Shown in pieces: positions 19,004-50,896 of a DNA stretch of 64,000 nt. The notes beneath the pieces were generated by a model, which saw nothing but the letters and a program-made list of their open reading frames with translations, had not been told where the DNA came from and did no database searches. Position 1 is the stretch's first letter, and each line of letters opens with the position of its first letter. The stretch comes from an uncultured Chlorobiaceae bacterium. GTDB taxonomy: Bacteria; Bacteroidota; Chlorobiia; Chlorobiales; Chlorobiaceae. The translations under genes were made by a program, and so were the position numbers. The DNA is taken from the NCBI GenBank assembly GCA_903940125.1, contig CAJAJL010000065.1, positions 62,001 through 126,000 of the forward strand. Reading direction: 5' to 3'.

Positions 19004-19253
19004 TCTTGGTTACAAGAAATCTGTCCAGCGAGATCTCAAGCAAATATCAAAGTTGGAGGCAATACGTATTCTTGATCATATTGAGCAAAAACTTGTCAAC
19101 GATCCTGAATCGAATCCTCTCCTCAAATGCCGGTTTGCAGGTCTAAGGAGATATCGGGTTGGTGACTACAGGGTAATTTATTTTCTTCGGGAAACTGAGA
19201 TTTGCATCTTGAGAATAGGCCACCGTAGAGATGTTTATAAACAGGAAATATAG
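18993..19253 (+). CDS. RelE-family toxin
   Basis: An 86-residue RelE-type endoribonuclease toxin with a TTG start at 18993 inside the end of the antitoxin gene. Core features: YKKSVQRDLKQISKLEAIRI, then LLKCRFAGLRRYRVGDYRVIYFL and CILRIGHRRDVYK, the classical RelE ending with its basic catalytic residues (Arg in RYRVGDYRVIY, GHRRDVY). RelE toxins cleave mRNA in the ribosomal A site. Nothing suggests inactivation. Confidence 0.87.
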   Translation: MAYSLGYKKSVQRDLKQISKLEAIRILDHIEQKLVNDPESNPLLKCRFAGLRRYRVGDYRVIYFLRETEICILRIGHRRDVYKQEI

Positions 19254-36230: not shown

Positions 36231-37913
36231 ATGATCGGCATTTTACTTGTCTGGCTTGCTTTTAGTCCAGTTCAGCCTGTTCCGGAAAGGCTGGAAGTTA
36301 CAAGCCAGGAACAGTTTCAGCGCCAGAAAGAGATTCCTGTCCGCAATCAGAAAAGTGTTGTCAGCAATAGTATATCAGAAAATATTCGGCGCTATTTCGA
36401 CCGGCAATTTCAGCAGAATGGTCATAAAGGTATTGCAGAATCGGGGGCAACCAGCAAACCTCTTGCTCGCTTCTATGCAGCAAGAAGGTTCCAGCCTGTA
36501 TGGACAAAGCCTGTAATGGTTTCAGAACTTATCAGTGCAATTGATGCCGCAGTCGACGAGGGTCTTGAGCCGTCCGATTACCATATCAGCGAAATCAGGG
36601 AGTTTCACAGTCAGCCGCCGGTAACTCCTGAGCTCCAGGCTCGTTATGATCTTCTTCTCAGCGATGCTTTTTTTACCCTTGCAAGTCATCTGCGGTTCGG
36701 AAAGGTTGATCCAAGGCGTCTTGACCCCGATTGGAATATTAATAATACTGTCAGTCGCAGTGCTCTGGAGTACATGCTTGAAAATGCAATTGCTGCTGAA
36801 CGGATAGCACTTGCTTTTAAAGAGCTTCGACCAAAATACTCCAAATACGACCAGCTCCGAACAGAGCTTTCGCGGTACCGGACAATTGCCCGCGAAGGAG
36901 GTTGGCCGACTATTGCGGAAGGTCCGAATCTGAAAGAGGGTGTCAGAGACAGCCGGGTACCCCTGCTGCGTCAACGGCTTGAAGTGTCGGAAGATATCGC
37001 AGAACTGAAAACCGGTGCTCACAGGGTCTATACCAGAGAACTTGCAGACGCGGTCAGACGCTTCCAGAAACGGAACGGTATGGAGTCCAACGGAGTGCTT
37101 GGCGCATCCACAGTCAGACTTCTGAATATTCCTGTTGAGCGTCGTATTGACCAGATTCGCATCAATCTTGAACGGTACCGGTGGTTTTTAAGCGAACTTG
37201 AACCCACCTATGTGATGGTGAATATTCCGGATTTCAGTCTTCACTATGTTGAAAACGGGCACTTGAATTGGGTATCACGGGTCATTGTCGGACAACCCGC
37301 CCGAAAAACTCCCATTTTCAAAGCTGATATGCAGTATATCATCTTTAATCCCCAATGGGTTATTCCTCCTACCATTCTTGCAAAAGATGCACTTCCCGGC
37401 ATTCGCAAAAACACATCTTATCTCAGCCATAAAAGGTTGAGCGTTATTGATCGGAACGGCGATATTGTTGATCCGGAAACAGTTAATTGGTCACAATACA
37501 CAAGCACAAACTTTCCTTACCGCCTGCAACAGTCATCCGGAGACCAGGGGTCACTGGGGCGGGTCAAGTTCATGCTCCCGAACAAGCATATTGTTTACCT
37601 GCATGATACTCCGCACAAGGAGCTGTTTAAAAAAAGCACCAGAGCGTTCAGTTCGGGATGTATCAGGGTGCAGAATCCTTTGGAGCTTGCCGGTCTTGTG
37701 CTTCAGGATAGTGTTAAATGGAGCAGGGAGCGGATCAATGCCGTGGTTGGCAGCAACAAAACAAAGACGGTATTTCTGCCAAAACGTATTCCAGTCTTTA
37801 TTCTCTATTTGACAGCTTATCCTGAAGGCGAAGATATTTTGTTTCGTGACGATGTTTATAATCGGGATAATGATGTGTTGAATGCTCTTAACAGGCCATC
37901 ACCAAAATTTTAA
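36231..37913 (+). CDS. L,D-transpeptidase, YcbB/LdtD-like
   Basis: A 560-residue periplasmic enzyme. A signal-anchor-like N-terminus (residues 1-18) is followed by the YcbB-type scaffold, with IDAAVDEGLEPSDYHISEI near residue 100. A peptidoglycan-binding domain lies at about 275-305 (LADAVRRFQKRNGMESNGVL) and the YkuD catalytic domain at about 325-500. Catalytic motifs are YLHDTPHKELF with the active His, and RAFSSGCIRVQNP with the catalytic Cys near 475. It builds meso-DAP to meso-DAP crosslinks. Same operon as the smaller L,D-transpeptidase upstream. Confidence 0.9.
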   Translation: MIGILLVWLAFSPVQPVPERLEVTSQEQFQRQKEIPVRNQKSVVSNSISENIRRYFDRQFQQNGHKGIAESGATSKPLARFYAARRFQPVWTKPVMVSELISAIDAAVDEGLEPSDYHISEIREFHSQPPVTPELQARYDLLLSDAFFTLASHLRFGKVDPRRLDPDWNINNTVSRSALEYMLENAIAAERIALAFKELRPKYSKYDQLRTELSRYRTIAREGGWPTIAEGPNLKEGVRDSRVPLLRQRLEVSEDIAELKTGAHRVYTRELADAVRRFQKRNGMESNGVLGASTVRLLNIPVERRIDQIRINLERYRWFLSELEPTYVMVNIPDFSLHYVENGHLNWVSRVIVGQPARKTPIFKADMQYIIFNPQWVIPPTILAKDALPGIRKNTSYLSHKRLSVIDRNGDIVDPETVNWSQYTSTNFPYRLQQSSGDQGSLGRVKFMLPNKHIVYLHDTPHKELFKKSTRAFSSGCIRVQNPLELAGLVLQDSVKWSRERINAVVGSNKTKTVFLPKRIPVFILYLTAYPEGEDILFRDDVYNRDNDVLNALNRPSPKF

Positions 37914-37936
37914 AAGGAAGTTCAGGCTTATACACC

Positions 37937-38407
37937 ATGTCATTTTCTGTAACAATCAACATCAAGAGGGAGTTTGAAACTTCCTGTACCCCCGACAAAG
38001 TTTTTGAACTTCTTGCCGATGTACCCCGTTCTGCCTCCCATTTTCCGAAAGTCGATCAATTGGTCGATCTTGGCGACAATACCTTTCGCTGGGAGATGGA
38101 AAAAATAGGTATCGGCGGCTACACGCTCCAGCAAACCATCTATGCTTCCCGCTACACCGCTGATGTTGCTACCCGCAAGGTATCCTGGACTCCTGTTCAA
38201 AGTGTCGGCAACGCCATTGTTTCAGGTGAGTGGACAATAACCCCGAAAGGGCGAGGAACAATGGTCGCGCTTAACACAAAAGGCGATCTTACGGTCGATT
38301 TTCCCTCATTTCTGGAGTTCATCATCTCCCCGCTTGTCGTCATGGAATTCACCGGCATGATAGAACGCTACCTCGTCAACCTTAAGGAGAGTTTCAGCAC
38401 ACTGTGA
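37937..38407 (+). CDS. SRPBCC-fold protein
   Basis: A 156-residue START/Bet v1-like protein. The family start FETSCTPDKVFELLADVPRS (the lid helix after the first strand) and the long C-terminal helix FIISPLVVMEFTGMIERYLVNLKE are clear. Such proteins bind hydrophobic ligands, but no ligand is suggested. It begins 23 bases after the L,D-transpeptidase, so it is the last gene of the envelope cluster before the defence-like block. Confidence 0.75.
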   Translation: MSFSVTINIKREFETSCTPDKVFELLADVPRSASHFPKVDQLVDLGDNTFRWEMEKIGIGGYTLQQTIYASRYTADVATRKVSWTPVQSVGNAIVSGEWTITPKGRGTMVALNTKGDLTVDFPSFLEFIISPLVVMEFTGMIERYLVNLKESFSTL

Positions 38408-38519
38408 TTGGAGCTACGTGTTGTATTCTATATCATCTCGTTGATTTGAGGATCTTTACAGTATCACACGAAAGGTATATTATCATAACAGCGACAAAGA
38501 ATTTACACGGAGTCAATCA

Positions 38520-41500
38520 TTGAGTGGCAACCATACAGATCTTACCTTTTTTACAAACGACGGGAACCAGACGCTTCTCGACAGGTTTAAAGTCACTCTT
38601 GCAGATACCCGTTTTTTTGATGTGCTTGTTGGTTATTTTCGTTCGAGTGGTTTTTATCAGCTTTACGACGCTATTGAACCTCTTGAAAAAACAAGAATAC
38701 TCGTTGGTCTTGGTCTGGATGGCGAGTCGTATGATGCCGTCAGTGCGTCACAGAATCAGGGTATTCTGGATTTCGATTCCCACAGTAACACGAAAAAGCA
38801 TTTTCAATCAACTCTGATTGGAGAAGTTGAAGAGTCAACAGAAACTGATCAGCACCTTGAAACAGGGTTGAGAAAGTTTATCGAATTTCTAAAGGCCGAT
38901 TGCTGTGACTCAGACAATGACCAAAAAAACGGTGGTAACGGTCGGAAGCTTGAAATCCGGGCCTTCCCATCAAAAAATATCCATGCCAAAGTATACATCG
39001 GCAGGTTTAAGCCCGACGATCGTGATTTCGGGTTTGTTATCACCGGGTCAAGTAACTTCTCATACTCCGGTCTGGTAGCAAACAGGGAGTTCAATGTTGA
39101 ACTGCGTCAGCGCGGTGATGTGGAATTTGCGCTCCAGCAGTTTGAAACGCTCTGGAAAGAATCCGTCGATATTTCAGAAGAGTTTGTTGATACGGTAGAA
39201 AACAAAACCTGGCTGAATGACAAGATCACTCCCTATGAGCTTTACCTGAAGCTCATCTATGAATACATGCAGGAGGACATCAACCTCCCGAACGATATTC
39301 AGTTGTTTCTGCCGGACGGTTTCATGCCGCTGCAATACCAGCAACAGGCGGTTATACAGGCGCTGAAAAAGCTTAACGAGTATAATGGCGTCTTTTTATC
39401 TGATGTGGTTGGTCTGGGGAAAACCTTTATTGCTGCTCAATTATTACAGCAGGTCAGGGGTCGAATTCTGGTGATTTGTCCGCCTACGCTGAAAGCTTAC
39501 TGGGAAGAGAGCCTGCATGACTTCAGGGTTCCAGCAAGAGTTGAGTCTTTGGGGAAACTTGATCACATTGTTCGATTCGGCATTGATCGCTTTGATTATG
39601 TCGTCGTTGATGAGGCTCACCGTTTCAGAAATGAAAATACCAGTTCATACGCTGATTTGCTTGATATCTGCCGGGGAAAGAAGGTCATTCTCGTCACTGC
39701 TACTCCGATGAATAACACCATCAATGATATTTTTGCCCAGCTCAAACTCTTTCAGGCGCCTAAAAATTCGACAATTCCAGGTATTCCGAACCTTGAAAAA
39801 TATTTCCAGACTCTTAGAAAACGATTTGATGGAATTGACCGCACTGATCCTGAATACAAAGAGCGAATCAAAGAGGTTTCCCGAGAGATTCGAGAACGTA
39901 TTCTGAAACATGTTATGGTACGCAGAACAAGAAAAGATGTTCTGACTTATTTTAAAGAGGACATGCAGCGCCAGAACCTTGGTTTTCCAAAAATGCAAAC
40001 GCCAAGAAAGATCGTTTATCGCTTTGAGGGTGAACTGGAACAAACCTTTAACACCACCATCAACCTGCTGCAATCGTTCCGCTACACCCGCTATATTCCG
40101 CTGCTTTATTATACCGGCAGCAAGCAGCTATCCGAATTTGAAAAGCAGCAGCAGCGAAATGTGGGTGGCTTCATGAAAGGCATTCTGATCAAACGCCTTG
40201 AAAGCAGCTTTTATGCATTCCGGAATAGTTTGCGACGCTTTGTCGAGTCATACGAACGTTTCATCACTATGTTCCAGTCAGGCACGGTATATATCAGCAA
40301 AAATATCGACGTCTACGATCTTCTTGAAAATGACGATATCGAAAAACTTGAAGCATTTGTTGAAGCTGAACAAGCCAGTAAATACAGGTTGGAAGACTTT
40401 AAAGAGGATTTCCATGCTGATCTTCTGCACGATCTTGAAATTCTCAAGCAACTTGAAGCTCTCTGGCTCAGTGTTGAAGATGATCCGAAGCTTGATGTTT
40501 TTATTCAATGCCTTCGCACTGACAAAGAGCTGAAAAAAAGCAAACTGGTGATCTTTACAGAGTCACGCGAAACAGGAGAGTATCTCTTTGATCGTTTGAA
40601 TAATGAATTTCCTGGTAAGGCACTGTTTTTCAGTAGTAAAGGCTGCCTTTCCAGCACATCAGGAGTCACAGCCAACCGTTCGAATGGACGTGAACTGATC
40701 CAGGCAGCTTTTGATCCCAATCATAAAGCGCCTACTGATGATGTGAGGATTCTTATTGCCACCGATGTGCTGGCAGAAGGAATGAACCTCCATCGGGCAA
40801 ATATTCTGATCAATTACGATCTACCCTGGAACCCCACAAGAGTGCTCCAACGTGCAGGGCGTATCAACCGCCTCGGAACAGCACATGCTGATATTTTCAT
40901 CTATAACTTTTTTCCGACCAGCCAGTCAGACATCCATCTGGGACTTGAAGTCAACATCACCAACAAAATCCAGATGTTCCACGCTATTCTTGGTGAAGAT
41001 GCAAAATATCTTTCTGAAGGGGAAGAAATCGGCAGTCAGGAACTCTTCGATACGTTGAACAACATCCGATCATATACAGGCGAAGATGAAGATGGCGATT
41101 CTGAGTTGATGTATCTTGATATGATTCGAAAACTTCGCGACGAAAACCCGCAGCTTTTCGAAAAAATAAAACGGCTTCCAAAAAAAGCACGTTCCGGCAG
41201 GCTCGTTGATACTGCTGAGGTGAACCAACTGCTCACTTTCTTTAGGATCGGGAAACTGAAAAAGTTTTATAGCAATAAACTTGAACAGCCTGCTGAAATC
41301 ACCTTTTTTGAGGCAGCGCGGTTGCTTGAATGTCTCCCTGATACTCCTCGTCAACCGATGCCCGGAGATTACTACCATCTCCTTGAACTGAACAAGCAGC
41401 AGTTTCAGCTCGATCAGCGCCTTGAAACAGATCCCATAAACAGTTTGAGCGGTGGGCGCTCCAATACCAGCTATATCGAACATCGCCTCAAGGATAAAGC

Positions 41501-41765
41501 TATCAAACACTGCCAGAAGTTTACCGATAGCGACGAAGAGTTCATCGATGCGCTCAGCAAGATGCTTTCGAGGGGAACAATTGCAAAAAAAGTAGCGCAA
41601 AGCGTTCGTAAAGAGCTTGAGAAAACGCTTGATCCGCTGGAGGTTATTACTATCCTGCGCAAACATATCCGTGTTGTAGACGCACCAGAAATAGCATCCG
41701 ACACTACCACATCAACAAAACGGGAAGTCATTCTCTCCGGTTACCAGATTGCACAACAGCCATAA
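38520..41765 (+). CDS. PLD-family nuclease fused to SNF2-type helicase
   Basis: A 1081-residue defence-type enzyme. Residues 1-215: PLD-like domain with IHAKVYIG (155-161) and ITGSSNFSYSGLVANREF (174-191); the Asp of the canonical HxKx4D is not conserved. Residues 270-900: superfamily 2 SNF2 helicase with Walker A DVVGLGKTF (295-303), DEAH box VVDEAHRFR (362-370), VTATPMNN (392-399), and motif VI QRAGRINRLG near 775. The start is TTG at 38520 with CGGAG nine bases upstream; there is no in-frame ATG. Known restriction systems such as R.CglI/NgoAVII pair a PLD nuclease subunit with an SNF2-like ATPase; here they are fused. The methylase gene starts six bases after its stop. Confidence 0.88.
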   Translation: MSGNHTDLTFFTNDGNQTLLDRFKVTLADTRFFDVLVGYFRSSGFYQLYDAIEPLEKTRILVGLGLDGESYDAVSASQNQGILDFDSHSNTKKHFQSTLIGEVEESTETDQHLETGLRKFIEFLKADCCDSDNDQKNGGNGRKLEIRAFPSKNIHAKVYIGRFKPDDRDFGFVITGSSNFSYSGLVANREFNVELRQRGDVEFALQQFETLWKESVDISEEFVDTVENKTWLNDKITPYELYLKLIYEYMQEDINLPNDIQLFLPDGFMPLQYQQQAVIQALKKLNEYNGVFLSDVVGLGKTFIAAQLLQQVRGRILVICPPTLKAYWEESLHDFRVPARVESLGKLDHIVRFGIDRFDYVVVDEAHRFRNENTSSYADLLDICRGKKVILVTATPMNNTINDIFAQLKLFQAPKNSTIPGIPNLEKYFQTLRKRFDGIDRTDPEYKERIKEVSREIRERILKHVMVRRTRKDVLTYFKEDMQRQNLGFPKMQTPRKIVYRFEGELEQTFNTTINLLQSFRYTRYIPLLYYTGSKQLSEFEKQQQRNVGGFMKGILIKRLESSFYAFRNSLRRFVESYERFITMFQSGTVYISKNIDVYDLLENDDIEKLEAFVEAEQASKYRLEDFKEDFHADLLHDLEILKQLEALWLSVEDDPKLDVFIQCLRTDKELKKSKLVIFTESRETGEYLFDRLNNEFPGKALFFSSKGCLSSTSGVTANRSNGRELIQAAFDPNHKAPTDDVRILIATDVLAEGMNLHRANILINYDLPWNPTRVLQRAGRINRLGTAHADIFIYNFFPTSQSDIHLGLEVNITNKIQMFHAILGEDAKYLSEGEEIGSQELFDTLNNIRSYTGEDEDGDSELMYLDMIRKLRDENPQLFEKIKRLPKKARSGRLVDTAEVNQLLTFFRIGKLKKFYSNKLEQPAEITFFEAARLLECLPDTPRQPMPGDYYHLLELNKQQFQLDQRLETDPINSLSGGRSNTSYIEHRLKDKAIKHCQKFTDSDEEFIDALSKMLSRGTIAKKVAQSVRKELEKTLDPLEVITILRKHIRVVDAPEIASDTTTSTKREVILSGYQIAQQP

Positions 41766-41771
41766 TCCACC

Positions 41772-44700
41772 ATGGACAAATCACAGGCAAAAAAACTCGT
41801 AGAGGATATTTTTCAGAACTCTTTTGACAGGGAGAACTACCAGCTTTTTCTTCGGAACCTGCTCAATGACTTTGTGGTTAGAGACCAGCACTATTCAGGA
41901 AGTCGAATTCCTTCGGCGTATTCAGAGCATGTTCGACAATATTGGCGAATTGGAAAGTATGTGGACTTTGACGGTATTGAAATGGATCTCCTCGTGGTAG
42001 AGTTGAAAAGTCTCTCCAAACTCGATCATGCACGTTCGATGTTGCGTAATTTTTCACTCAGAACTCTTAAAACGTTTGGAAAGGAATGTGCTTTAATTGC
42101 TTTTTATGCGCACGAAGACAATGGTGCGGAGTGGCGATTTTCATTTGTCAAAATTGAACATCAGGCTTTCAGGGACGACAAGGGGAGAGTTCGCATCAAG
42201 GATGAGTTTACCCCTGCTAGGCGTTGCTCATATTTGGTCGGCAAACATGAAAACAGCCATACAGCTGAGCAGCAGCTCCTGCCCTTACTTGAAAGAGACT
42301 ACACCAATCCCCGGATTGAAGAGATCGAAGCTGCGTTCAGTATCGAAAAGGTAACTGATGAATTTTTTGAGCAATATAAGGGGCTCTATCTCAAGCTTTC
42401 TGAACAACTGAAACGACAACCAATGTTCTTGAATGCTTCAGGAGATGAGACGAGCAACAGCGTTGCCCGGTTTGCAAAAAAGCTTCTCGGTCAGATTGTC
42501 TTTCTCTACTTTTTGCAGAAAAAAAGGTGGCTTGGTGTGGCGAAAGATGACAAATGGGACAGTGGATCAAGACGATTTATGCGTGATCACTTCGAGCTTA
42601 TTGCTGAAGGAGAAAAAAACTACTATCGCGATTTTTTGCAATTTCTGTTTTATGAAGCGCTAGCAAAAGAGCGCAAAGATCAGGATGATCCCGACTACTA
42701 CCAGCGTTTTGACTGCAAAATCCCGTTCCTGAACGGCGGCCTTTTTGAACGTGATGACATGCAAATAGAAACCATCGATTTGCCGAACTCGCTCTTCCAC
42801 AACAAAGAAAAGGGCAAGTCTGGTGATGAGGGTACTGGTATTCTTGATATTTTTGACCGATATAATTTTACCATAAAAGAGGATGAACCGCTTGAGAAAG
42901 AGGTTGCGGTTGATCCTGAAATGCTTGGTAAGGTTTTCGAAAACATGCTTGAGGGGACAGAGCGTAAAAGCATGGGCGCATTTTACACTCCCCGCGAAAT
43001 AGTTCACTACATGTGTCAGGAAAGCCTGATTCATTACCTCGATAACGTTTTGAACAATGCTCCCCCGGTTTTTAACGAAATCGGCCACAGTCAGACCAGC
43101 TTTTTCGGAAATGAGGTTCGAACTGGTCAACTTCAGCTCACTGAAGAAACAGAGGAGGTCAGGGTTCCGAAAGAAGATATCGAAACACTGATCAGGAAGG
43201 GACATCTCTTCATAGATACCCTGAAGCTTCCAGAATCAGTTAGACAACATGCACAACTCATTGATAACTATCTGTCTGGCATAAAAGCTTGCGATCCTGC
43301 TATCGGGTCCGGCGCGTTTCCTGTTGGTTTACTGCACGAAATTGTTACTGCCCGTATGGCCTTGGCACAGCATCTCGAACATCCACAAACCATCTACGCA
43401 CTCAAACGCCACACAATTCGTGAAAGCCTTTACGGTGTTGATATAGATCAGAGTGCCATCGATATTGCTCGTCTGCGACTCTGGCTCTCGCTTATTGTTG
43501 ACGAGGAGGACTATAACACCATAGAGGCACTACCGAACCTTGACTACAAAATTGTTCATGGGAACTCCCTGATCGGCCTGCCCAGCAATGTCCTCAAGGA
43601 CGACGTTGCGTCCCAGCTGATTGAGATAATGAAATTTGATTTTTACGAGGAAACCGAAGAGTTAAAAAGAAAGGAAAAGCGCAAAGCAATCGACTCTCGA
43701 CTCCATGAATTCCTAACAACGGCAAGGCAGTATACCGGTTACACGGTTGATTTCGATTTTGAACTTTTCTTTTCTGAAGTATGGCATCAAAAAGGGGGGT
43801 TCGATGTCGTTATCGGAAACCCGCCCTATGTGCAGATACAGAATTTCAGCGGGAAAGAGATTCAGAAAACATGGGAAAAACAGAACTACGAAACCTTCGC
43901 GAAAACAGGTGACATCTACTGTCTTTTTTACGAAAAAGGCTTTCGTCTGTTGCGGAAAAACGGGGTACTTGCATTCATTACCTCGAACAAGTGGATGAGA
44001 GCCAAATACGGAGAGAAGCTTCGGAAGTTTTTTTTAAACCAAACGAAGCTCCTTCAGCTCATCGATTTTGGTGATTCACAGATATTCTCTGAAGCGACCA
44101 CTTATACAAATATTTTGCTTTTCGCTAAAACAAAAACTCTTGTTGAGAATGTGAAAGCGTTTGATTTATCTAAAGCATATCGTTCAGACGTATCACTTTA
44201 TCAAATGCTACATGATAATCAATTTGGTGAAGCTATTTGCAATCAGAGTGGGTATATGATTATGGATTCGAAATTAATGGATATAAAAAAACGTATAGAA
44301 ACAGTAGGGACTATACTAAAGAATTGGGACGTTTTAATATGTCGAGGAATGTTAACAGGATTTAATGAAGCTTTTATTATCGAAGGAAAAATAAAAGATG
44401 AATTGATTGCTCTTGATAAAAATAACTCAAAGATTATAAAGCCAATTTTGCGTGGAAGAGATATAAAAAGTTATAGCATAGATTATTCAGATCGTTGGAT
44501 AATTAATACACACAATGGATATAAAGATGTTTTACCAGTGAATGTTGATGAGTATCCCGTAATAAAACAATATCTCAACCAATTTTTAGAAGAATTGCAA
44601 AATCGTCAGGATAAAGGAATAAGCCCATATAACCTTAGAAGCTGCGCTTACCTACCGGAATTCAAGAAAGAGAAAATTGTTTGGTTAGAGATGTCTCCAA

Positions 44701-45245
44701 AACCAAATTTCGCTCTTTCAAATGAGGAAATGTATGTTCTAAATACTTCATATATCCTTACTGGAAAATATCTTAAATGGATTTTGGCAATTTTAAATTC
44801 AAGTGTTCTGGATTGTTATTTCTCTTTTATTACAACCGATGTGAGGGGCAATACACGGCGATATATAAAACAATACGTTGAAATGCTTCCTATAGTTTGT
44901 TATCAAACTGATTATGCAAAATTTATTGAAATATTTGTTGACTATTTGCTATGGCTTGATAAAAAAGGCGGTAAACTTCTTTCCGCCTTCTTCAAACAAA
45001 TTATCGATGCTCTTATCTATGAGCTTTATTTTTCTGAAGAGCTGATAAGAGCAGGAAAAGAGATTCAGAAACATCTCGGCGATGTGAAACCCGTTTCAGA
45101 GCACATGACCGATACTGAAAAACTCGCTATCATCCAGAGCGAGTTTGATCGGCTCTACGACCCGAACCACCCTGTCCGTAACAACATTGAAACCCTCGAT
45201 AGTGTCGATGAAGTTCGCATCATAAGGGAGGCTTTGAAGAGATGA
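41772..45245 (+). CDS. Eco57I-type adenine-specific DNA methyltransferase with nuclease-like N-terminus
   Basis: A 1157-residue protein. Residues 60-100 hold a PD-(D/E)XK-like motif (D67 or D72, then E77-L-K79 in VVELKS), suggesting a type IIG-style nuclease. A helical linker spans 180-400. The N6-adenine methyltransferase follows, with motif I ACDPAIGSGAFPVGLL near 506 and motif IV IGNPPYVQIQ near 682. The C-terminal third is the target-recognition region, where base composition drops to markedly AT-rich (about 44080-44960). This may be a complete modification-restriction enzyme or the modifier for the helicase partner. It overlaps the next gene by four bases. Confidence 0.88.
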   Translation: MDKSQAKKLVEDIFQNSFDRENYQLFLRNLLNDFVVRDQHYSGSRIPSAYSEHVRQYWRIGKYVDFDGIEMDLLVVELKSLSKLDHARSMLRNFSLRTLKTFGKECALIAFYAHEDNGAEWRFSFVKIEHQAFRDDKGRVRIKDEFTPARRCSYLVGKHENSHTAEQQLLPLLERDYTNPRIEEIEAAFSIEKVTDEFFEQYKGLYLKLSEQLKRQPMFLNASGDETSNSVARFAKKLLGQIVFLYFLQKKRWLGVAKDDKWDSGSRRFMRDHFELIAEGEKNYYRDFLQFLFYEALAKERKDQDDPDYYQRFDCKIPFLNGGLFERDDMQIETIDLPNSLFHNKEKGKSGDEGTGILDIFDRYNFTIKEDEPLEKEVAVDPEMLGKVFENMLEGTERKSMGAFYTPREIVHYMCQESLIHYLDNVLNNAPPVFNEIGHSQTSFFGNEVRTGQLQLTEETEEVRVPKEDIETLIRKGHLFIDTLKLPESVRQHAQLIDNYLSGIKACDPAIGSGAFPVGLLHEIVTARMALAQHLEHPQTIYALKRHTIRESLYGVDIDQSAIDIARLRLWLSLIVDEEDYNTIEALPNLDYKIVHGNSLIGLPSNVLKDDVASQLIEIMKFDFYEETEELKRKEKRKAIDSRLHEFLTTARQYTGYTVDFDFELFFSEVWHQKGGFDVVIGNPPYVQIQNFSGKEIQKTWEKQNYETFAKTGDIYCLFYEKGFRLLRKNGVLAFITSNKWMRAKYGEKLRKFFLNQTKLLQLIDFGDSQIFSEATTYTNILLFAKTKTLVENVKAFDLSKAYRSDVSLYQMLHDNQFGEAICNQSGYMIMDSKLMDIKKRIETVGTILKNWDVLICRGMLTGFNEAFIIEGKIKDELIALDKNNSKIIKPILRGRDIKSYSIDYSDRWIINTHNGYKDVLPVNVDEYPVIKQYLNQFLEELQNRQDKGISPYNLRSCAYLPEFKKEKIVWLEMSPKPNFALSNEEMYVLNTSYILTGKYLKWILAILNSSVLDCYFSFITTDVRGNTRRYIKQYVEMLPIVCYQTDYAKFIEIFVDYLLWLDKKGGKLLSAFFKQIIDALIYELYFSEELIRAGKEIQKHLGDVKPVSEHMTDTEKLAIIQSEFDRLYDPNHPVRNNIETLDSVDEVRIIREALKR

Positions 45246-46705
45246 AAATTCAGTCTATTGAAATCACCAACTACAAAGCTTTTCTTGGCACATACCCAAT
45301 CAAGGTTGACGGTAAAAACCTCTTCATCTATGGTGAAAACGGCAGCGGTAAAAGCTCTCTCTACTATGCCCTGAAAGATTTTTTTCAGTCGTCCATCGAA
45401 AACATTGATCTGCATGAGCTTGAAAATATTTTTGTCTCCGAAGAGAAAAAAGGCTCGACCGCAATCAATGTTAAATTTTCGTCCGATCAAGAAGGAAAAG
45501 GAAAAACTCGAAACTATGAGTTTTCCTCATCAAGAAATGATACCAGAGAAGCCGCCGACACCACTATCCGCGATGCAAACAAGCTGAAAAGCTTTCTCAC
45601 CTATAAGCATCTGCTGGATATTCACCATCTGAAAAAGCATAACTCCATCAATCTCTTTGATCTTTTGGTAAAAGGGGTCTTGAAACACTTCCGATACTCC
45701 CTGACCAATGGCCGCGAGCTTGGTGAGCTATGGGAAGACGTGGAGTCGATGATTGAAAAAAAGACAGGTCGTGAATACCCCATTAACAAAAAGAAAACCG
45801 AGGTCAATTCTGCAATCAAGGCTTTCAATGAAGCTTTTGGTGAACTGTTTAAGCCCGACAGTCCTGAGTACATTCTCAAACACGCAAAACCAATTCTTGA
45901 CCAGTTCAATCACAATATCCAAGTAACTCTTCGCTATGCTCAGGTTCGTCCGAGCAGTGATTATTCCGCGTTAGACAATGCTCGTGTCACTGTTGATCTT
46001 CTTTACGCTGGAAAAAAGATTGCATATCCACATTTGTTTCTCAACGAAGCCCGACTGTCAGCAATAGCCATTTCCATCTACCTTGGAATGATCAAACGGC
46101 ATGTGCAGGGGATCCCCTGCAAAATCTTGTTTCTCGACGACATATTTATCGGACTTGATATCGCCAACCGCTTGCCTTTGCTACAAATACTGGAATATGA
46201 GTTTCCCGAATATCAGGTATTCATCACCACCTATGACAAACCCTGGTTCGAATATGCCAAAGGTTTTCTTGAAAACAATAAAGTCTGGAAGACAATGGAG
46301 TTCTATGCCCAGGAAACAATAGAGGGCTTTGAAATCCCCTGCATCTTCGATAATCAAGACTTTCTTGAAAAGGCAGCATACCACCTGCAGCACTCCGATT
46401 ACAAAGCAGCCGCAGTCTACACCCGTTCAGCCTTTGAAAAAATTATCCGCACTTACTGCGAAAAAAAGAAAAAGAAACTGGTGTTCAAATCCAGACTGAA
46501 AGACTATTCATCAGAAGATTTCTGGAAGGAAGTAAAACCTGATCTGCACCCCAAAACTATAACAGATATTGAACAATATCGCAATCTTGTTCTTAACGCT
46601 TTCAGCCACTACAACACCGAAAAACATGAAATCCGAACTGAACTGATCTCAGCTATTCAAGTAGTGAAGGCTCTTAATATTGAACTGAAGAGTATGCAAT
46701 CTTGA
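45242..46705 (+). CDS. compact RecF/SMC-like ATPase of the defence block
   Basis: A 487-residue ABC-class ATPase. N-terminal KIQSIEITNYKAFLG is followed by Walker A IYGENGSGKSSLYYAL (31-40), a signature-like LNEARLSAIAISIYLG, and Walker B ILFLDDIFIGLD near 297. The middle (60-250) is only moderately helical, without the long coiled coil of SMC or Rad50. The last 130 residues form a separate helical domain ending YRNLVLNAFSHYNTEKHEI, a pattern I associate with C-termini of defence ATPases and loosely with HEPN-like domains (motif spacing differs, so not claimed). It is coupled to the methylase gene by an ATGA overlap. Confidence 0.8.
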   Translation: MKIQSIEITNYKAFLGTYPIKVDGKNLFIYGENGSGKSSLYYALKDFFQSSIENIDLHELENIFVSEEKKGSTAINVKFSSDQEGKGKTRNYEFSSSRNDTREAADTTIRDANKLKSFLTYKHLLDIHHLKKHNSINLFDLLVKGVLKHFRYSLTNGRELGELWEDVESMIEKKTGREYPINKKKTEVNSAIKAFNEAFGELFKPDSPEYILKHAKPILDQFNHNIQVTLRYAQVRPSSDYSALDNARVTVDLLYAGKKIAYPHLFLNEARLSAIAISIYLGMIKRHVQGIPCKILFLDDIFIGLDIANRLPLLQILEYEFPEYQVFITTYDKPWFEYAKGFLENNKVWKTMEFYAQETIEGFEIPCIFDNQDFLEKAAYHLQHSDYKAAAVYTRSAFEKIIRTYCEKKKKKLVFKSRLKDYSSEDFWKEVKPDLHPKTITDIEQYRNLVLNAFSHYNTEKHEIRTELISAIQVVKALNIELKSMQS

Positions 46706-46877
46706 TGCTTTTCAAGTGGTGCTTGATATAGCCAAGATGATCCCAACTGGATTAAATATTTGCTGCCCTTTTGTTATTTTTCCTGCCAGCAGATCCTTGT
46801 GTTCATTGCAAAAAAACTTTTTCCCGCGATGTTCGATTTGTGCGGTGGATGTTGTGAATGTATAGCCAATAAGTTGA

Positions 46878-49800
46878 ATGAAAATTCTTGAATATACCGG
46901 CCTTGATGTCTCAAGTGTCAAGGCAGGCTATCGTAAGGTAACCGATGCCCTTGCCCGCAATGATTTCCGCGCGGCACAGGTTAAAAAACTTGTCAACCTC
47001 ACTCATGGCAAGTTCTATCGCGCAAAGCTCGATGATGCTGACCGGCTTCTCTTTACGCTTGTTCGCCATGGCGATGAAGTGTGTGCTTTGATGCTTGAGG
47101 TTATTGCCAGCCATAATTACGACAAGTCGCGTTTTTTGCGGGGTGCACTCATTGACGAATCTAAAATTCCCGATGTCGACCTCGGTGAAGCTGTAAAAGA
47201 TGCTGAGCATTTACGCTATCTGCATCCTGAGCATATTGCGATTCACCTGCTCGACAAGCCTATCTCTTTTGATGATACTCAGGAGATGATCTACCGTCAG
47301 CAGCCTCCCCTGATTATTGTCGGAAGTGCCGGCAGCGGCAAGACAGCCTTGACTCTCGAGAAGCTGAAACATGCTGAAGGGGAGGTGCTCTATGTTACTC
47401 ACTCGGTCTATCTGGCTCAGAATGCGCGAAACCTCTACTACGCTCATGGTTTTGAGCACACCGGGCAGGAAGCCCACTTTCTCTCCTACCGTGAGTTTGT
47501 TGAATCGATTCGTGTGCCTGCTGGTCGTGAAGCCACCTGGCGTGATTTTTCAGGGTGGTTTGCCCGCATGCAGAACTCGTTTAAAGGTATCGATGCGCAT
47601 CAGGCATTTGAGGAGATACGCGGCGTGATTACTGCCGGCGACGCAGGGATTCTCAGTCGCGAAGAGTACGCATCGCTTGGTATTCGTCAATCAATCTTCG
47701 GCGAAAATCAGCGAGAGAAACTCTATGAGCTCTTCGGAAAATATCGTCAGTGGCTTGCTGAAGAGGGATTGTTCGACTTGAACATTGTTGTGCACGACTG
47801 TGAAGCAACACCCCGATACGATTTTGTTGTTATTGACGAGGTGCAGGATCTCACCATCGCGCAGCTCTCCCTGGTGCTTAAGACGCTTAAAAAGAAGGGA
47901 AACTTTCTGCTCTGCGGTGATTCAAACCAGATTGTTCATCCTAATTTCTTTTCATGGAGTCAGGTGAAAACTCTTTTCTGGAATGACCCAAAACTTGCCG
48001 GTCAGCAGCAGATGAGTGTGCTCACCGCTAATTTCCGTAATGGAACGGAAGCTACCCGTATTGCCAATCAACTGCTTAAAATAAAGCAGCGGCGCTTTGG
48101 CTCCATCGACAAGGAAAGCAATTTTCTCGTGCAGGCTGTTGGAGGAGAAGCAGGGACTGTGGCTCTGATGGCTGATAATGAGTCTGTAAAGCGTGAACTC
48201 GATAAAAAAACAAAACAATCAACCCGCTTTGCCGTGCTGGTCATGCGCGATGAAGACAAGCAGGAGGCACGTAAATATTTTTCAACACCCTTGTTATTCT
48301 CGATACATGAAGCCAAGGGGCTGGAATATGAAAATATTGTGCTTTACCGGTTTGTTTCCGGCCACCGAAGCGAGTTTAACGAAATCGTCGACGGTGTTGG
48401 CAAAAATGATCTCGCAGTTGAAAATCTTGATTATCGTCGAGCAAAAGACAAGAGCGACAAATCCCTTGAAGTCTACAAGTTTTTTGTCAATGCGATCTAT
48501 GTTGCATTGACCAGAGCGATAAAAAATCTTTATATCATCGAATCCGACACCGGTCACCGGCTTTTCAGCCTGCTTGAGCTTGATGTCGATGGCAAAGTGA
48601 AGGTCGAAGCAGCCCAATCATCACTTGAGGAGTGGCAGAAAGAGGCCAGAAAGCTTGAACTCCAGGGTAAACAGGAGCAGGCAGAGGCTATTCGCCAGAC
48701 TATTCTCAAACAATCTCCGCCACCCTGGCCGGTTTTTGATGAAGCTCATGTACGGGAGGCGCTCCTTAAAGTATTCCGTGACAAGGTGCCTGGCAATAAG
48801 CAGAAACACCAGCTTTACGAATATGCCACCTATCATGATGAACCTTTTCTGGCTGAACGACTCATTAAGGATGCTCAATTTGAGTCGAAAAAAAGTTTCA
48901 ATGAACAGCTTGAAACACTTGGACGGAAAAGTTATCTGCCCTATTTCACCCAGCAGACCAGAAACATTCTGAAGCAGTGTGATCAGTATGGTACTGACCA
49001 CCGGCTTCCCATGAACCAGACACCGCTGATGGCAGCAGCAGCTTCCGGCAATATTCCTTTAACCGAAGCACTGCTCGAACGGGGTGCAGACACGGAGAAG
49101 ACCGACCAGTATGGATTCAATGCCCTGCATTGGGCAATGCGTATAGCATTCCGCAATCGCGAATATGCCCGAAGAAACTTTGCTGTGCTCTATGAACTGC
49201 TTGCACCACCATGCGTTGACGTCAACAACGGTGATCGTCTTGTACGCCTTGACCGACATCTCTCTGAATACTTCCTTTTTCAGACGCTCTGGGTACTCTT
49301 TAAATCCCGTTTCACCCACCGTCTGCGGAACTCTTACGGAGCTTTTGATACAAAGGTCATTCTTGAGGCATGGACAAATATGCCGGTCAATGTTGTTTAC
49401 CCTGAACGCAATCGACGGCAGTATCTCTCAGGAGTACTTGCCCGCAACGAAGTTGAGCGCGACTATGCATACAATCGGGGGTTGTTTGTCCGTATTATTC
49501 AAGGCTGGTATCAATTCAATCCGAAACTTTCAGTACGATCCATTGACCCCGACAACAAGCAGGGATGGACTGCCGTGTATCAGGCATTGAACCTTCCACT
49601 GATTTACGAGTTCTCGGATGAACAGATCTTACTGCAGGTTGAAAAATACTTTACGATGGCCGGCATTCCGAAACCTGCCTCTCCGGTTTCCGCTGGACCG
49701 GCCCTTGCACGCATGGAAGAATATAAAATGAGGCGTTCTCCTCACTGGCAAATACTGAAAAAGATAGGTAGTGAACTTAATAAACAGTCATTCAAGGAGC

Positions 49801-49934
49801 TTCAAGAGAGCAAGCGTCTACAAGTTGAAAAGCGTAAGCGGCTTGAAGAAGAAATACGTTTTCGGAAAGAGGAAATACAGAGGATCAGAGAGAAGCAGGA
49901 AAGCGAAAGAGATCAGTTATCATTAAACCTTTAA
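46878..49934 (+). CDS. UvrD-type helicase with RelE-like N-terminus, ankyrin repeats and coiled coil
   Basis: A 1018-residue multidomain protein. Residues 1-90 read like a RelE/ParE fold (KLVNLTHGKFYRAKLDDADR, then LLFTLVRHGD, LEVIASHNYDKSRF). Residues 140-570 are a superfamily 1 helicase: Walker A VGSAGSGKTALTLEKL (148-163), VVIDEVQDLTIAQLSLVL near 318, LLCGDSNQIVHPNFF, IHEAKGLEYENIVLYRF, and YVALTRAIKNLYI near 545. Ankyrin-like repeats follow near 710-750 (TPLMAAAASGNIPLTEALLE, NALHWAMRIAF). The C-terminus (955-1018) is a charged coiled coil. It is separated from the ATPase gene by 172 bases, so it may have its own promoter. Confidence 0.82.
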   Translation: MKILEYTGLDVSSVKAGYRKVTDALARNDFRAAQVKKLVNLTHGKFYRAKLDDADRLLFTLVRHGDEVCALMLEVIASHNYDKSRFLRGALIDESKIPDVDLGEAVKDAEHLRYLHPEHIAIHLLDKPISFDDTQEMIYRQQPPLIIVGSAGSGKTALTLEKLKHAEGEVLYVTHSVYLAQNARNLYYAHGFEHTGQEAHFLSYREFVESIRVPAGREATWRDFSGWFARMQNSFKGIDAHQAFEEIRGVITAGDAGILSREEYASLGIRQSIFGENQREKLYELFGKYRQWLAEEGLFDLNIVVHDCEATPRYDFVVIDEVQDLTIAQLSLVLKTLKKKGNFLLCGDSNQIVHPNFFSWSQVKTLFWNDPKLAGQQQMSVLTANFRNGTEATRIANQLLKIKQRRFGSIDKESNFLVQAVGGEAGTVALMADNESVKRELDKKTKQSTRFAVLVMRDEDKQEARKYFSTPLLFSIHEAKGLEYENIVLYRFVSGHRSEFNEIVDGVGKNDLAVENLDYRRAKDKSDKSLEVYKFFVNAIYVALTRAIKNLYIIESDTGHRLFSLLELDVDGKVKVEAAQSSLEEWQKEARKLELQGKQEQAEAIRQTILKQSPPPWPVFDEAHVREALLKVFRDKVPGNKQKHQLYEYATYHDEPFLAERLIKDAQFESKKSFNEQLETLGRKSYLPYFTQQTRNILKQCDQYGTDHRLPMNQTPLMAAAASGNIPLTEALLERGADTEKTDQYGFNALHWAMRIAFRNREYARRNFAVLYELLAPPCVDVNNGDRLVRLDRHLSEYFLFQTLWVLFKSRFTHRLRNSYGAFDTKVILEAWTNMPVNVVYPERNRRQYLSGVLARNEVERDYAYNRGLFVRIIQGWYQFNPKLSVRSIDPDNKQGWTAVYQALNLPLIYEFSDEQILLQVEKYFTMAGIPKPASPVSAGPALARMEEYKMRRSPHWQILKKIGSELNKQSFKELQESKRLQVEKRKRLEEEIRFRKEEIQRIREKQESERDQLSLNL

Positions 49935-49950
49935 CGTAATCACTTTTCTT

Positions 49951-50244
49951 ATGAAACAATTTCTACACAGAAACCCTGATATCGGAGTAAAAAAAACAGT
50001 TGTTTCCGAACGACTCAAAGCTGACATTTTTCATTCTACTCCCGTCGTTGCATATGGCGCCATGGCTCTCGGTGCCCTGGCAATTGGAGCATGTGCGATA
50101 GGTACACTGGCCATTGGAAAACTTGTCCTCGGCAAACTTTGCATCGGCCACGCCCGCATCAAAAAGCTCGAAATAGAAGAACTGACCATCGGGCATGAAG
50201 GCTTCAGAAAGGAGGCTAAGCCGGCATGTTGTCAAGGAGCATAA
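49951..50244 (+). CDS. small hydrophobic pentapeptide-repeat-like protein
   Basis: A 97-residue protein. Residues 30-72 follow a five-residue period (GALAI GACAI GTLAI, then GKLVL, GKLCI, GHARI, KKLEI, EELTI), an A/L-I-G variant of pentapeptide repeats that could fold as a small right-handed beta-helix. The same stretch is hydrophobic enough to enter a membrane. The ends are polar; the C-terminus has two Cys (KPACCQGA). It begins 16 bases after the UvrD-fusion stop, so it is probably co-transcribed. Function unknown. Confidence 0.6.
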   Translation: MKQFLHRNPDIGVKKTVVSERLKADIFHSTPVVAYGAMALGALAIGACAIGTLAIGKLVLGKLCIGHARIKKLEIEELTIGHEGFRKEAKPACCQGA

Positions 50245-50347
50245 GAAGTTAAATTAATATCTATATTGCTTTCACACATTAAGGTTGAAAATCACGAATA
50301 AGAGGTGTCTCTGTTTTTAGAGAAGAAAGCAATTGAAGCCATACGAT

Positions 50348-50896
50348 ATGAATGTCGACCTGAATGTTATCCCCAATTCGGTTCTGCTTGATGAGTTGTT
50401 TGCACCTTACCGGCAAATGCTGGGTTCTGATTACGATGCCTATAGAAATCACGGTTTGCGTGTTTTCAACTTTTGTTGCGCGCTTGCGGGAGAACGTGCA
50501 GATGCCGATAAAATAGCAGTTGCAGCTTTTTTTCATGATATCGGGATTTGGACCGATAACACCTTTGATTACATTCGTCCATCTCAATTGCTTGCCCGTC
50601 GTTATCTTGAAAAAGCAAACAAAGTGGCATGGTGTGATGAAATAGAGGCAATGATCGGTGAGCATCACAAGGTGTCAAAATATAAACTGAATCCCTCATG
50701 GCTTGTTGAACCGTTCAGAAAAGCTGACTGGATAGATCTTTCTGCAGGATTGCTTCGGTGCCGTTTACCGGATGATTTTGTTACAAATGTTATTCTTGCA
50801 TTTCCCAACGCCGGATTCCATAAAAAGCTTCTTGCACTGGCTGTAGAGCGACTGAAAAGCCATCCCTTCAACCCGTTGCCAATGATGAAACTTTAG
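50348..50896 (+). CDS. HD-domain phosphohydrolase
   Basis: A 182-residue HD-superfamily protein from the ATG at 50348 (a TTG start at 50333 is possible). Metal-binding residues: an early His in YDAYRNHGLRVFNFC, the His-Asp pair in VAAFFHDIGIWTDNT (about residue 60), and a later His pair in IGEHHKVSKY. It resembles small metal-dependent phosphohydrolases acting on nucleotides; the substrate is unknown. It converges with metH across a hairpin terminator. Confidence 0.82.
   Translation: MNVDLNVIPNSVLLDELFAPYRQMLGSDYDAYRNHGLRVFNFCCALAGERADADKIAVAAFFHDIGIWTDNTFDYIRPSQLLARRYLEKANKVAWCDEIEAMIGEHHKVSKYKLNPSWLVEPFRKADWIDLSAGLLRCRLPDDFVTNVILAFPNAGFHKKLLALAVERLKSHPFNPLPMMKL

What the first reader, a model, noticed from the sequence alone, without database searches (positions are those of the whole stretch)
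46878..49934. UvrD-type helicase carrying a RelE-like toxin domain plus ankyrin repeats and coiled coil
Residues 1-90 have the strand pattern and Arg/His positions of RelE/ParE toxins; they are followed by complete SF1 helicase motifs, ankyrin-like repeats and a C-terminal coiled coil. A toxin-like RNase or RNA-binding domain fused to a DNA helicase beside a methylase-ATPase cassette would make a plausible sensor-effector for abortive infection. Domain assignment at the N-terminus is by eye only.
Basis: partly seen in the sequence, partly recalled or inferred. Interest (0 to 1): 0.6.

Follow-up and report, generated by a model that had tools for sequence, protein, structure and literature searches.

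The report
Stand-alone RelE–helicase–ankyrin fusion protein
A single bacterial gene fuses a toxin-like RNA-cutting fold (RelE/YoeB type) to a UvrD-type DNA helicase and ankyrin repeats; it travels on its own between bacteria, and its closest studied relative is part of an antiphage system, so it is probably a one-gene guard against foreign nucleic acid.

Summary
Residues 1-92 take the RelE/YoeB fold (AlphaFold2 pLDDT 89, pTM 0.83; best VIA-align Z 8.3; all 50 listed PDB rows are RelE-superfamily or RelE-domain proteins). Lys37, Arg56 and His79 are invariant in 28 of 28 aligned N-termini, and the domain is as constrained as the helicase. A complete SF1 helicase, one to two ankyrin repeats, a conserved orphan C-terminal domain and a poorly conserved coil follow.

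The proposed link to the neighbouring methylase-ATPase cassette fails. In 86 Chlorobiaceae genomes the gene occurs in 28, next to the cassette or its remnant in only 3; empty sites exist, and the cassette sits elsewhere in others. No conserved antitoxin gene was found. Relatives occur in Pseudomonadota, Deinococcus and 139 plasmid records (101 of them Shigella); sister forms with TPR-like tails occur in cyanobacteria and Fusobacteriota.

RelE-UvrD fusions are already published as ArmD of ARMADA Type II (antiphage, described as non-abortive). This is a stand-alone ankyrin variant of that kind: new variant, not a new category. RNase activity and a defence role are inferred.

The parts
46878..49934 (+). 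whole gene, 1018 aa, RelE-UvrD-ankyrin fusion
   Evidence: co-linear orthologues; dN/dS well below 1
46878..47153 (+). residues 1-92: RelE/YoeB-fold domain (b1 2-5, a 12-26, b2 46-50, b3 56-64, b4 67-76)
46986..46988 (+). Lys37, invariant in 28 of 28 aligned N-termini
47043..47045 (+). Arg56, invariant 28 of 28; aligned with Arg65 of E. coli YoeB
47112..47114 (+). His79, invariant 28 of 28; lies just after the last strand, like His83 of YoeB (equivalence inferred)
   Evidence: sequence of E. coli YoeB
47268..48587 (+). residues 131-570: SF1A (UvrD/GajB-like) helicase
47322..47345 (+). Walker A GSAGSGKT (149-156)
47835..47849 (+). motif II DEVQD (320-324)
48990..49142 (+). ankyrin repeats (705-755)
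49188..49613 (+). conserved C-terminal domain of unknown fold (771-912)
   Evidence: no family or PDB-sequence match
49665..49931 (+). variable coiled-coil tail (930-1018)
38520..46705 (+). neighbouring PLD-SNF2 helicase / type IIG-PglX-like methylase / SMC-like AAA-DUF4145 cassette: an independent insertion at the same site, not a partner
50333..50896 (+). HD-domain gene that marks the downstream edge of the variable site; found in 73 of 86 Chlorobiaceae with or without the fusion gene

Best explanation
It is a stand-alone, horizontally moving guard protein of the RelE-UvrD (ArmD-like) kind. Shown here: the N-terminus has the RelE/YoeB fold with three invariant polar residues; the helicase motifs are intact; RelE and helicase domains are under equally strong purifying selection; no conserved antitoxin gene accompanies it; it comes and goes at a variable site and on plasmids. 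Inferred: the SF1 motor loads on foreign or abnormal nucleic acid (single strands, ends or transcription-linked loops), the ankyrin and C-terminal domains recognise a partner or hold the protein off, and ATP-driven movement frees or places the RelE domain to cut RNA, most likely mRNA as YoeB-type toxins do. Restraint in cis by the rest of the protein would replace the antitoxin.
For: Fold: model of residues 1-120, pLDDT 89.3, pTM 0.83; Foldseek best hit YoeB/ParE toxin 6n90 E 1.4e-3, prob 1.00; VIA-align Z 8.3, rmsd 2.4-2.8 over 76-77 residues to YoeB-type toxins, and all 50 listed rows are RelE-superfamily or RelE-domain proteins, incl. the CARF-RelE protein Cami1. Sequence bridge: the family profile matches cyanobacterial-type RelE-UvrD N-termini (score 39.0 against a maximum of 15.3 in 60 column shuffles); the joint set matches YoeB (score 26.0, P 4e-4; 0 of 60 shuffles reach it); N-termini of relatives hit Pfam YoeB (E 0.0023) and HigB-like (0.0033), below cut-off. 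Lys37, Arg56, His79 invariant in 28 of 28, position 50 Lys or Arg in 28 of 28. dN/dS 0.06-0.11 for RelE and 0.05-0.07 for the helicase. Mobility: 28 of 86 Chlorobiaceae, 139 plasmid records, empty sites; the Proteobacteria-labelled MAG L016 (71%) is closer than same-family G009/G013 (65-66%). Precedent: ArmD is essential for ARMADA Type II defence (PMC12458937, section 6).
Against: No activity is shown. The window's own N-terminus has no Pfam hit, and against PDB sequences the N-terminal profile gives no RelE hit. The profile of this family alone is only marginally above shuffles for YoeB (20.1 against shuffle maxima 19.7 and 18.1), and no match to HigB- or ParE-toxin profiles was seen (rough alignments). 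Of ten neighbours scanned outside Chlorobiaceae most are housekeeping or unassigned genes. Known members of Gabija and ARMADA need partner genes; this one has none. The family is absent from 50,697 phage records, which neither helps nor hurts.
Confidence: 0.45

Rival explanations
1. The RelE-fold domain no longer cuts: it is a binding module (RNA, ribosome or the helicase itself), and the protein is an accessory nucleic-acid helicase acting on R-loops or stalled transcription/replication.
For: One YoeB catalytic residue (Glu46, recalled) has no counterpart in the aligned stretch, where the family has lysines; position 48 changes from Arg to Glu between branches; no killing phenotype is known; orthologues sit among ordinary genes.
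Against: Lys37, Arg56 and His79 are invariant in 28 of 28 sequences; RelE itself uses Lys/Arg residues without a Glu (recalled); patchy, mobile distribution is unlike a repair gene.
Confidence: 0.28
2. A plasmid or mobile-element maintenance device: a self-restrained toxin that punishes loss of the element or rival elements.
For: 139 plasmid records hold it; two cyanobacterial sister genes sit beside parA or parA/parB-type genes.
Against: Many copies are chromosomal at a fixed site with housekeeping flanks; broken copies exist (G066 with stops, G082 split, G057 only residues 1-81), so loss is tolerated; no conserved antitoxin ORF was found.
Confidence: 0.15
3. It is the fourth gene of an ARMADA-like system formed by the SNF2 helicase, methylase and AAA genes just upstream.
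For: Order SNF2 - PglX-like methylase - third gene - RelE-UvrD parallels ArmA-ArmB-ArmC-ArmD; five of six genomes with a close SNF2 homologue also carry the fusion (hypergeometric P 0.013, not corrected for kinship).
Against: No YprA-like helicase; adjacency in 3 of 28 carriers only, with the AAA gene broken or a remnant in two of them; cassette on other contigs in G061, G079, G084 and present without the fusion in G049.
Confidence: 0.07

Closest known systems
ArmD of ARMADA Type II (Bell et al., PMC12458937, preprint 2025)
   Same: N-terminal RelE-like domain fused to a GajB-like UvrD helicase; reported essential for antiphage activity (sections 5 and 6 read)
   Different: ArmD works in a four-gene operon with ArmA, ArmB and the YprA-Vsr protein ArmC; Walker A Lys to Walker B Asp spacing is 188 (K266, D454), as in the cyanobacterial forms found here (K211, D399), against 165 in the window protein. 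The paper's main text has 0 hits for 'ankyrin' and 'Chlorob'.
YoeB / RelE toxins (type II toxin-antitoxin)
   Same: fold, and an Arg aligned with YoeB Arg65
   Different: fused to a helicase; no antitoxin gene found; sequence similarity below Pfam cut-offs
GajB (Gabija)
   Same: UvrD-like helicase; PADLOC GajB models match at E 2.8e-10 to 6e-5
   Different: has an extra RelE domain and ankyrin part; no GajA partner
Cami1 (CARF-RelE; PDB 8phj)
   Same: a RelE domain built into a larger protein; among the structural matches
   Different: partner is a CARF sensor, not a helicase; tied to type III CRISPR (recalled)
Multidomain BECR-fold toxins surveyed by Gerdes (PMC11980606)
   Same: RelE/ParE-fold domains fused to other domains
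   Different: main text has 0 occurrences of helicase, UvrD or ankyrin, and states that multidomain proteins without an antitoxin were left out

Membership tests
RelE/ParE superfamily (BECR fold) | b-a-b-b-b RelE fold | tested here: met
RelE/ParE superfamily (BECR fold) | sequence-profile match above a curated cut-off | tested here: not met
   0 Pfam families for residues 1-120; distant relatives hit YoeB/HigB-like/Gp49 below cut-off; weak profile match to YoeB. Fold membership rests on structure, not on this
RelE-type mRNA interferase | catalytic residues and RNA cleavage | tested here: inconclusive
   conserved Lys37, Arg56, His79, but no residue-level structural superposition and no assay
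Type II toxin-antitoxin module | adjacent cognate antitoxin gene | tested here: not met
   no small ORF conserved beyond a few close relatives within 450 bp either side, 28 loci, 211 ORFs
SF1A (UvrD/Rep) helicase | motifs I, II, III, V, VI and UvrD_C | tested here: met
ARMADA Type II | RelE-UvrD protein (ArmD-like) | tested here: met
   domain order; definition. ArmD itself not compared
ARMADA Type II | YprA-like helicase ArmC in the operon | tested here: not met
   the genes from 36231 to 49934 are transpeptidase, cyclase, PLD-SNF2, methylase, AAA and the fusion; none is YprA-like by Pfam/NCBIfam/PADLOC
[quoted passage not shown]
   3 of 28 Chlorobiaceae carriers
Gabija | GajA (ATPase-TOPRIM) next to GajB | tested here: not met
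   neighbouring AAA protein matches SMC_N/AAA_15 and DUF4145, best PADLOC AriA/mad3, and its GajA hits cover only the first ~100 residues; absent from most carriers

The most novel reading that the evidence does not exclude
A one-gene immune device in which an antitoxin-less YoeB-like RNase is held in check, and aimed, by its own UvrD motor and ankyrin module: the helicase plays sensor and antitoxin at once. Members would act alone on chromosomes of green sulfur bacteria and on large plasmids, including those of Shigella, where a full-length relative sits in plain view annotated only as 'UvrD-helicase domain-containing protein'.
Probability: 0.3. Interest if true: 0.75.

Novelty: new variant of a known kind. 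Interest (0 to 1): 0.5.

Why it matters
If right, it separates the RelE-UvrD unit from the ARMADA operon and shows it can stand alone, so the role of the RelE domain, for which section 6 of the ARMADA paper names no mutant, could be tested in a single protein. It would also give a testable function to a conserved gene annotated only as a helicase or ankyrin protein on Shigella plasmids, and an example of a RelE-fold domain controlled in cis rather than by an antitoxin.

Tried and rejected
Link to the cassette: rejected by synteny. HD-domain gene as partner: it follows the fusion gene within 1.8 kb in 17 of 28 carriers, but is present in 73 of 86 genomes anyway, so it marks the site. Antitoxin search: nothing conserved. 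HigB_toxin and ParE profiles: no match, with the caveat that ORFs were picked by position and 7 of 24 (HigB) and 2 of 24 (ParE) were on the wrong strand, so those two comparisons are rough. C-terminal domain as a winged helix: a guess by eye, no profile support. Full-length structure model: mean pLDDT 64.6, pTM 0.38, too poor for fold searches. Viral contigs and phages: none beyond generic helicase motifs. Defence enrichment of neighbours: 163 PADLOC families matched among 74 neighbour proteins, none by more than 2 of 74, no control set run, so no claim; ten of those 74 scanned singly gave three with partial hits. Literature: ten searches found RelE-UvrD only in PMC12458937 (sections 5, 6 and passages read); PMC11980606 (abstract and passages), PMC3710099, PMC5512222 and PMC3543421 (passages only) do not describe it in what I saw. 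Genome Biol 2003 4:R81 is not held.

Full report
WHAT IS THERE. The ORF at 46878-49934 (+) encodes 1018 aa. Pfam sees the helicase (AAA_19, UvrD_C, UvrD-helicase, all above cut-off) and ankyrin repeats at 705-755; PADLOC and NCBIfam see only generic UvrD/GajB-type and ankyrin similarity. Nothing in Pfam matches residues 1-120. Thirty loci from the genome collection encode relatives, mostly Chlorobiaceae at 75-94% identity plus MAGs labelled Proteobacteria, a Massilia and others at 58-71%. The alignment of 20 shows invariant motifs throughout the helicase and a run of invariant residues in 1-90.

THE N-TERMINUS IS A RELE FOLD. Predicted from an alignment of 17 sequences, residues 1-120 give pLDDT 89.3 and pTM 0.83 with order b-a-b-b-b. 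Foldseek against the PDB ranks YoeB/ParE, YoeB, RelE-type, YafQ and other toxins of this superfamily first (best E 1.4e-3, probability 1.00; none reaches E 0.001). VIA-align gives Z 8.3 to three YoeB-type chains, and all 50 rows shown are RelE-superfamily or RelE-domain proteins. Z near 8 alone could be a common arrangement, so the uniformity of the list matters more than the number. At sequence level the window's family matches the N-termini of three other RelE-UvrD proteins (Euhalothece, Crinalium, G327) with score 39.0 against a maximum of 15.3 in 60 column shuffles, and the joint set matches YoeB at 26.0 (0 of 60 shuffles reach it). The window's family alone is marginal (20.1; shuffle maxima 19.7 and 18.1). 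Crinalium and Euhalothece N-termini hit Pfam HigB-like (0.0033) and YoeB (0.0023) below cut-off. Against PDB sequences the N-terminal profile hit no RelE protein.

CONSERVED RESIDUES. In 28 aligned N-termini (20 from A1, three plasmid orthologues, G275, G327, Euhalothece, Crinalium, Cetobacterium) Lys37, Arg56 and His79 are identical in 28 of 28 and position 50 is Lys or Arg in 28 of 28; position 48 is Arg in 24 and Glu in 4. Arg56 aligns with YoeB Arg65; that Arg65 and His83 are catalytic in YoeB is recalled, and the His79-His83 equivalence is inferred from position. dN/dS against L002, L003, L005 and L006 is 0.06-0.11 for RelE and 0.05-0.07 for the helicase, and higher for the coil where it could be computed.

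IT MOVES ALONE. In 86 Chlorobiaceae genomes 30 match at E<=0.001, of which two (G064, G008) are weak helicase-only matches, leaving 28. The site lies between a cyclase gene and an HD-domain gene next to metH. The fusion gene lies there in eight genomes (G000, G035, G037, G038, G052, G061, G073, G076); in G033, G034, G055, G070, G071 and G072 the two flanking genes stand within 1.4 kb with no fusion gene between. Other cargo at the site includes an Abi_2 gene with AAA remnants (G038), a split AAA_15 ATPase (G058) and an aminotransferase plus hybrid kinase (scanned in G028; like-looking genes in G024 and G042). The SNF2-methylase-AAA cassette adjoins the fusion gene only in G000, in G037 (AAA gene broken) and as an AAA remnant in G038; close SNF2 homologues are on other contigs in G061, G079 and G084 and occur without the fusion in G049. 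Some copies are decaying: G066 has stops, G082 is split, and G057 keeps only residues 1-81. The Proteobacteria-labelled MAG L016 is nearer to the window protein (71%) than same-family G009 and G013 (65-66%), as expected of transfer across phyla, though a MAG label can be wrong.

PLASMIDS. tblastn finds the protein in 139 of 72,556 plasmid records, 125 of them over at least 80% of the query: Shigella 101, Escherichia 13, Piscirickettsia 10, Methylosinus 2 and others. Residues 1-106 alone are found in 133 records, 128 over at least 80% of the query, so the RelE part is kept there. None of 50,697 phage records matches. Plasmid copies in Methylosinus, Deinococcus and Polymorphobacter have unrelated neighbours; the cyanobacterial sisters lie near a ParA-type gene (Crinalium) or an AAA ATPase and ParB pair (Euhalothece).

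ARCHITECTURE IS A CLASS. Sister proteins keep RelE plus UvrD but carry TPR-like tails: Crinalium TPR_2 E 1.6e-5, Cetobacterium TPR_2 E 1e-3, G327 with Clathrin/TPR-like repeats, all below Pfam cut-off. Walker A to motif II spacing is 188-189 in Crinalium, Euhalothece and Cetobacterium, and 165-172 in the window protein and its plasmid orthologues.

WHAT IS KNOWN. Bell et al. (PMC12458937; [quoted passage not shown] Deleting any of the four genes abolished protection, the ArmD Walker A mutant was inactive and the Walker B mutant partly active, and infected cells stayed intact. Section 6 names no RelE-site mutant. Gerdes (PMC11980606, abstract and passages) left out multidomain toxins without antitoxins. 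No paper found in ten searches (listed under Tried and rejected) describes a stand-alone or ankyrin-bearing RelE-UvrD protein; the library lacks most subscription journals and I read no supplements.

VERDICT. The gene is a stand-alone ankyrin branch of a published kind of fusion. RNase activity, cis restraint and a defence role are inferences from fold, conservation, mobility and the ArmD precedent.

Noticed in passing
plasmid records of Shigella (101) and Escherichia (13), listings only: A relative (about 42% identity over residues 1-902, RelE part included) is present on these plasmids and is annotated only as UvrD-helicase, ankyrin or hypothetical protein.
   Followed up: partly
38520-46705: Mobile cassette of PLD-SNF2 helicase, type IIG/PglX-like methylase and an SMC-like AAA protein with a C-terminal DUF4145 (HEPN-like) stretch; found whole or in part at other places in related genomes.
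   Followed up: partly
19011-19238: A ParE_toxin (PF05016) match, E 6e-11, lies elsewhere in the window; its genome has 11 such matches.
   Followed up: no
49951-50244: Small 97-aa gene with Ala-Ile-Gly repeats after the fusion gene in some close relatives, and present at several sites that lack the fusion gene.
   Followed up: no
L073:582-932: In G057 the fusion gene is reduced to its RelE part (residues 1-80) in a 116-aa ORF; probably a deletion remnant, possibly a free toxin-like ORF.
   Followed up: no
L074:5582-6094: An Abi_2 gene (E 6.8e-20) with AAA remnants sits at the same variable site in G038.
   Followed up: no
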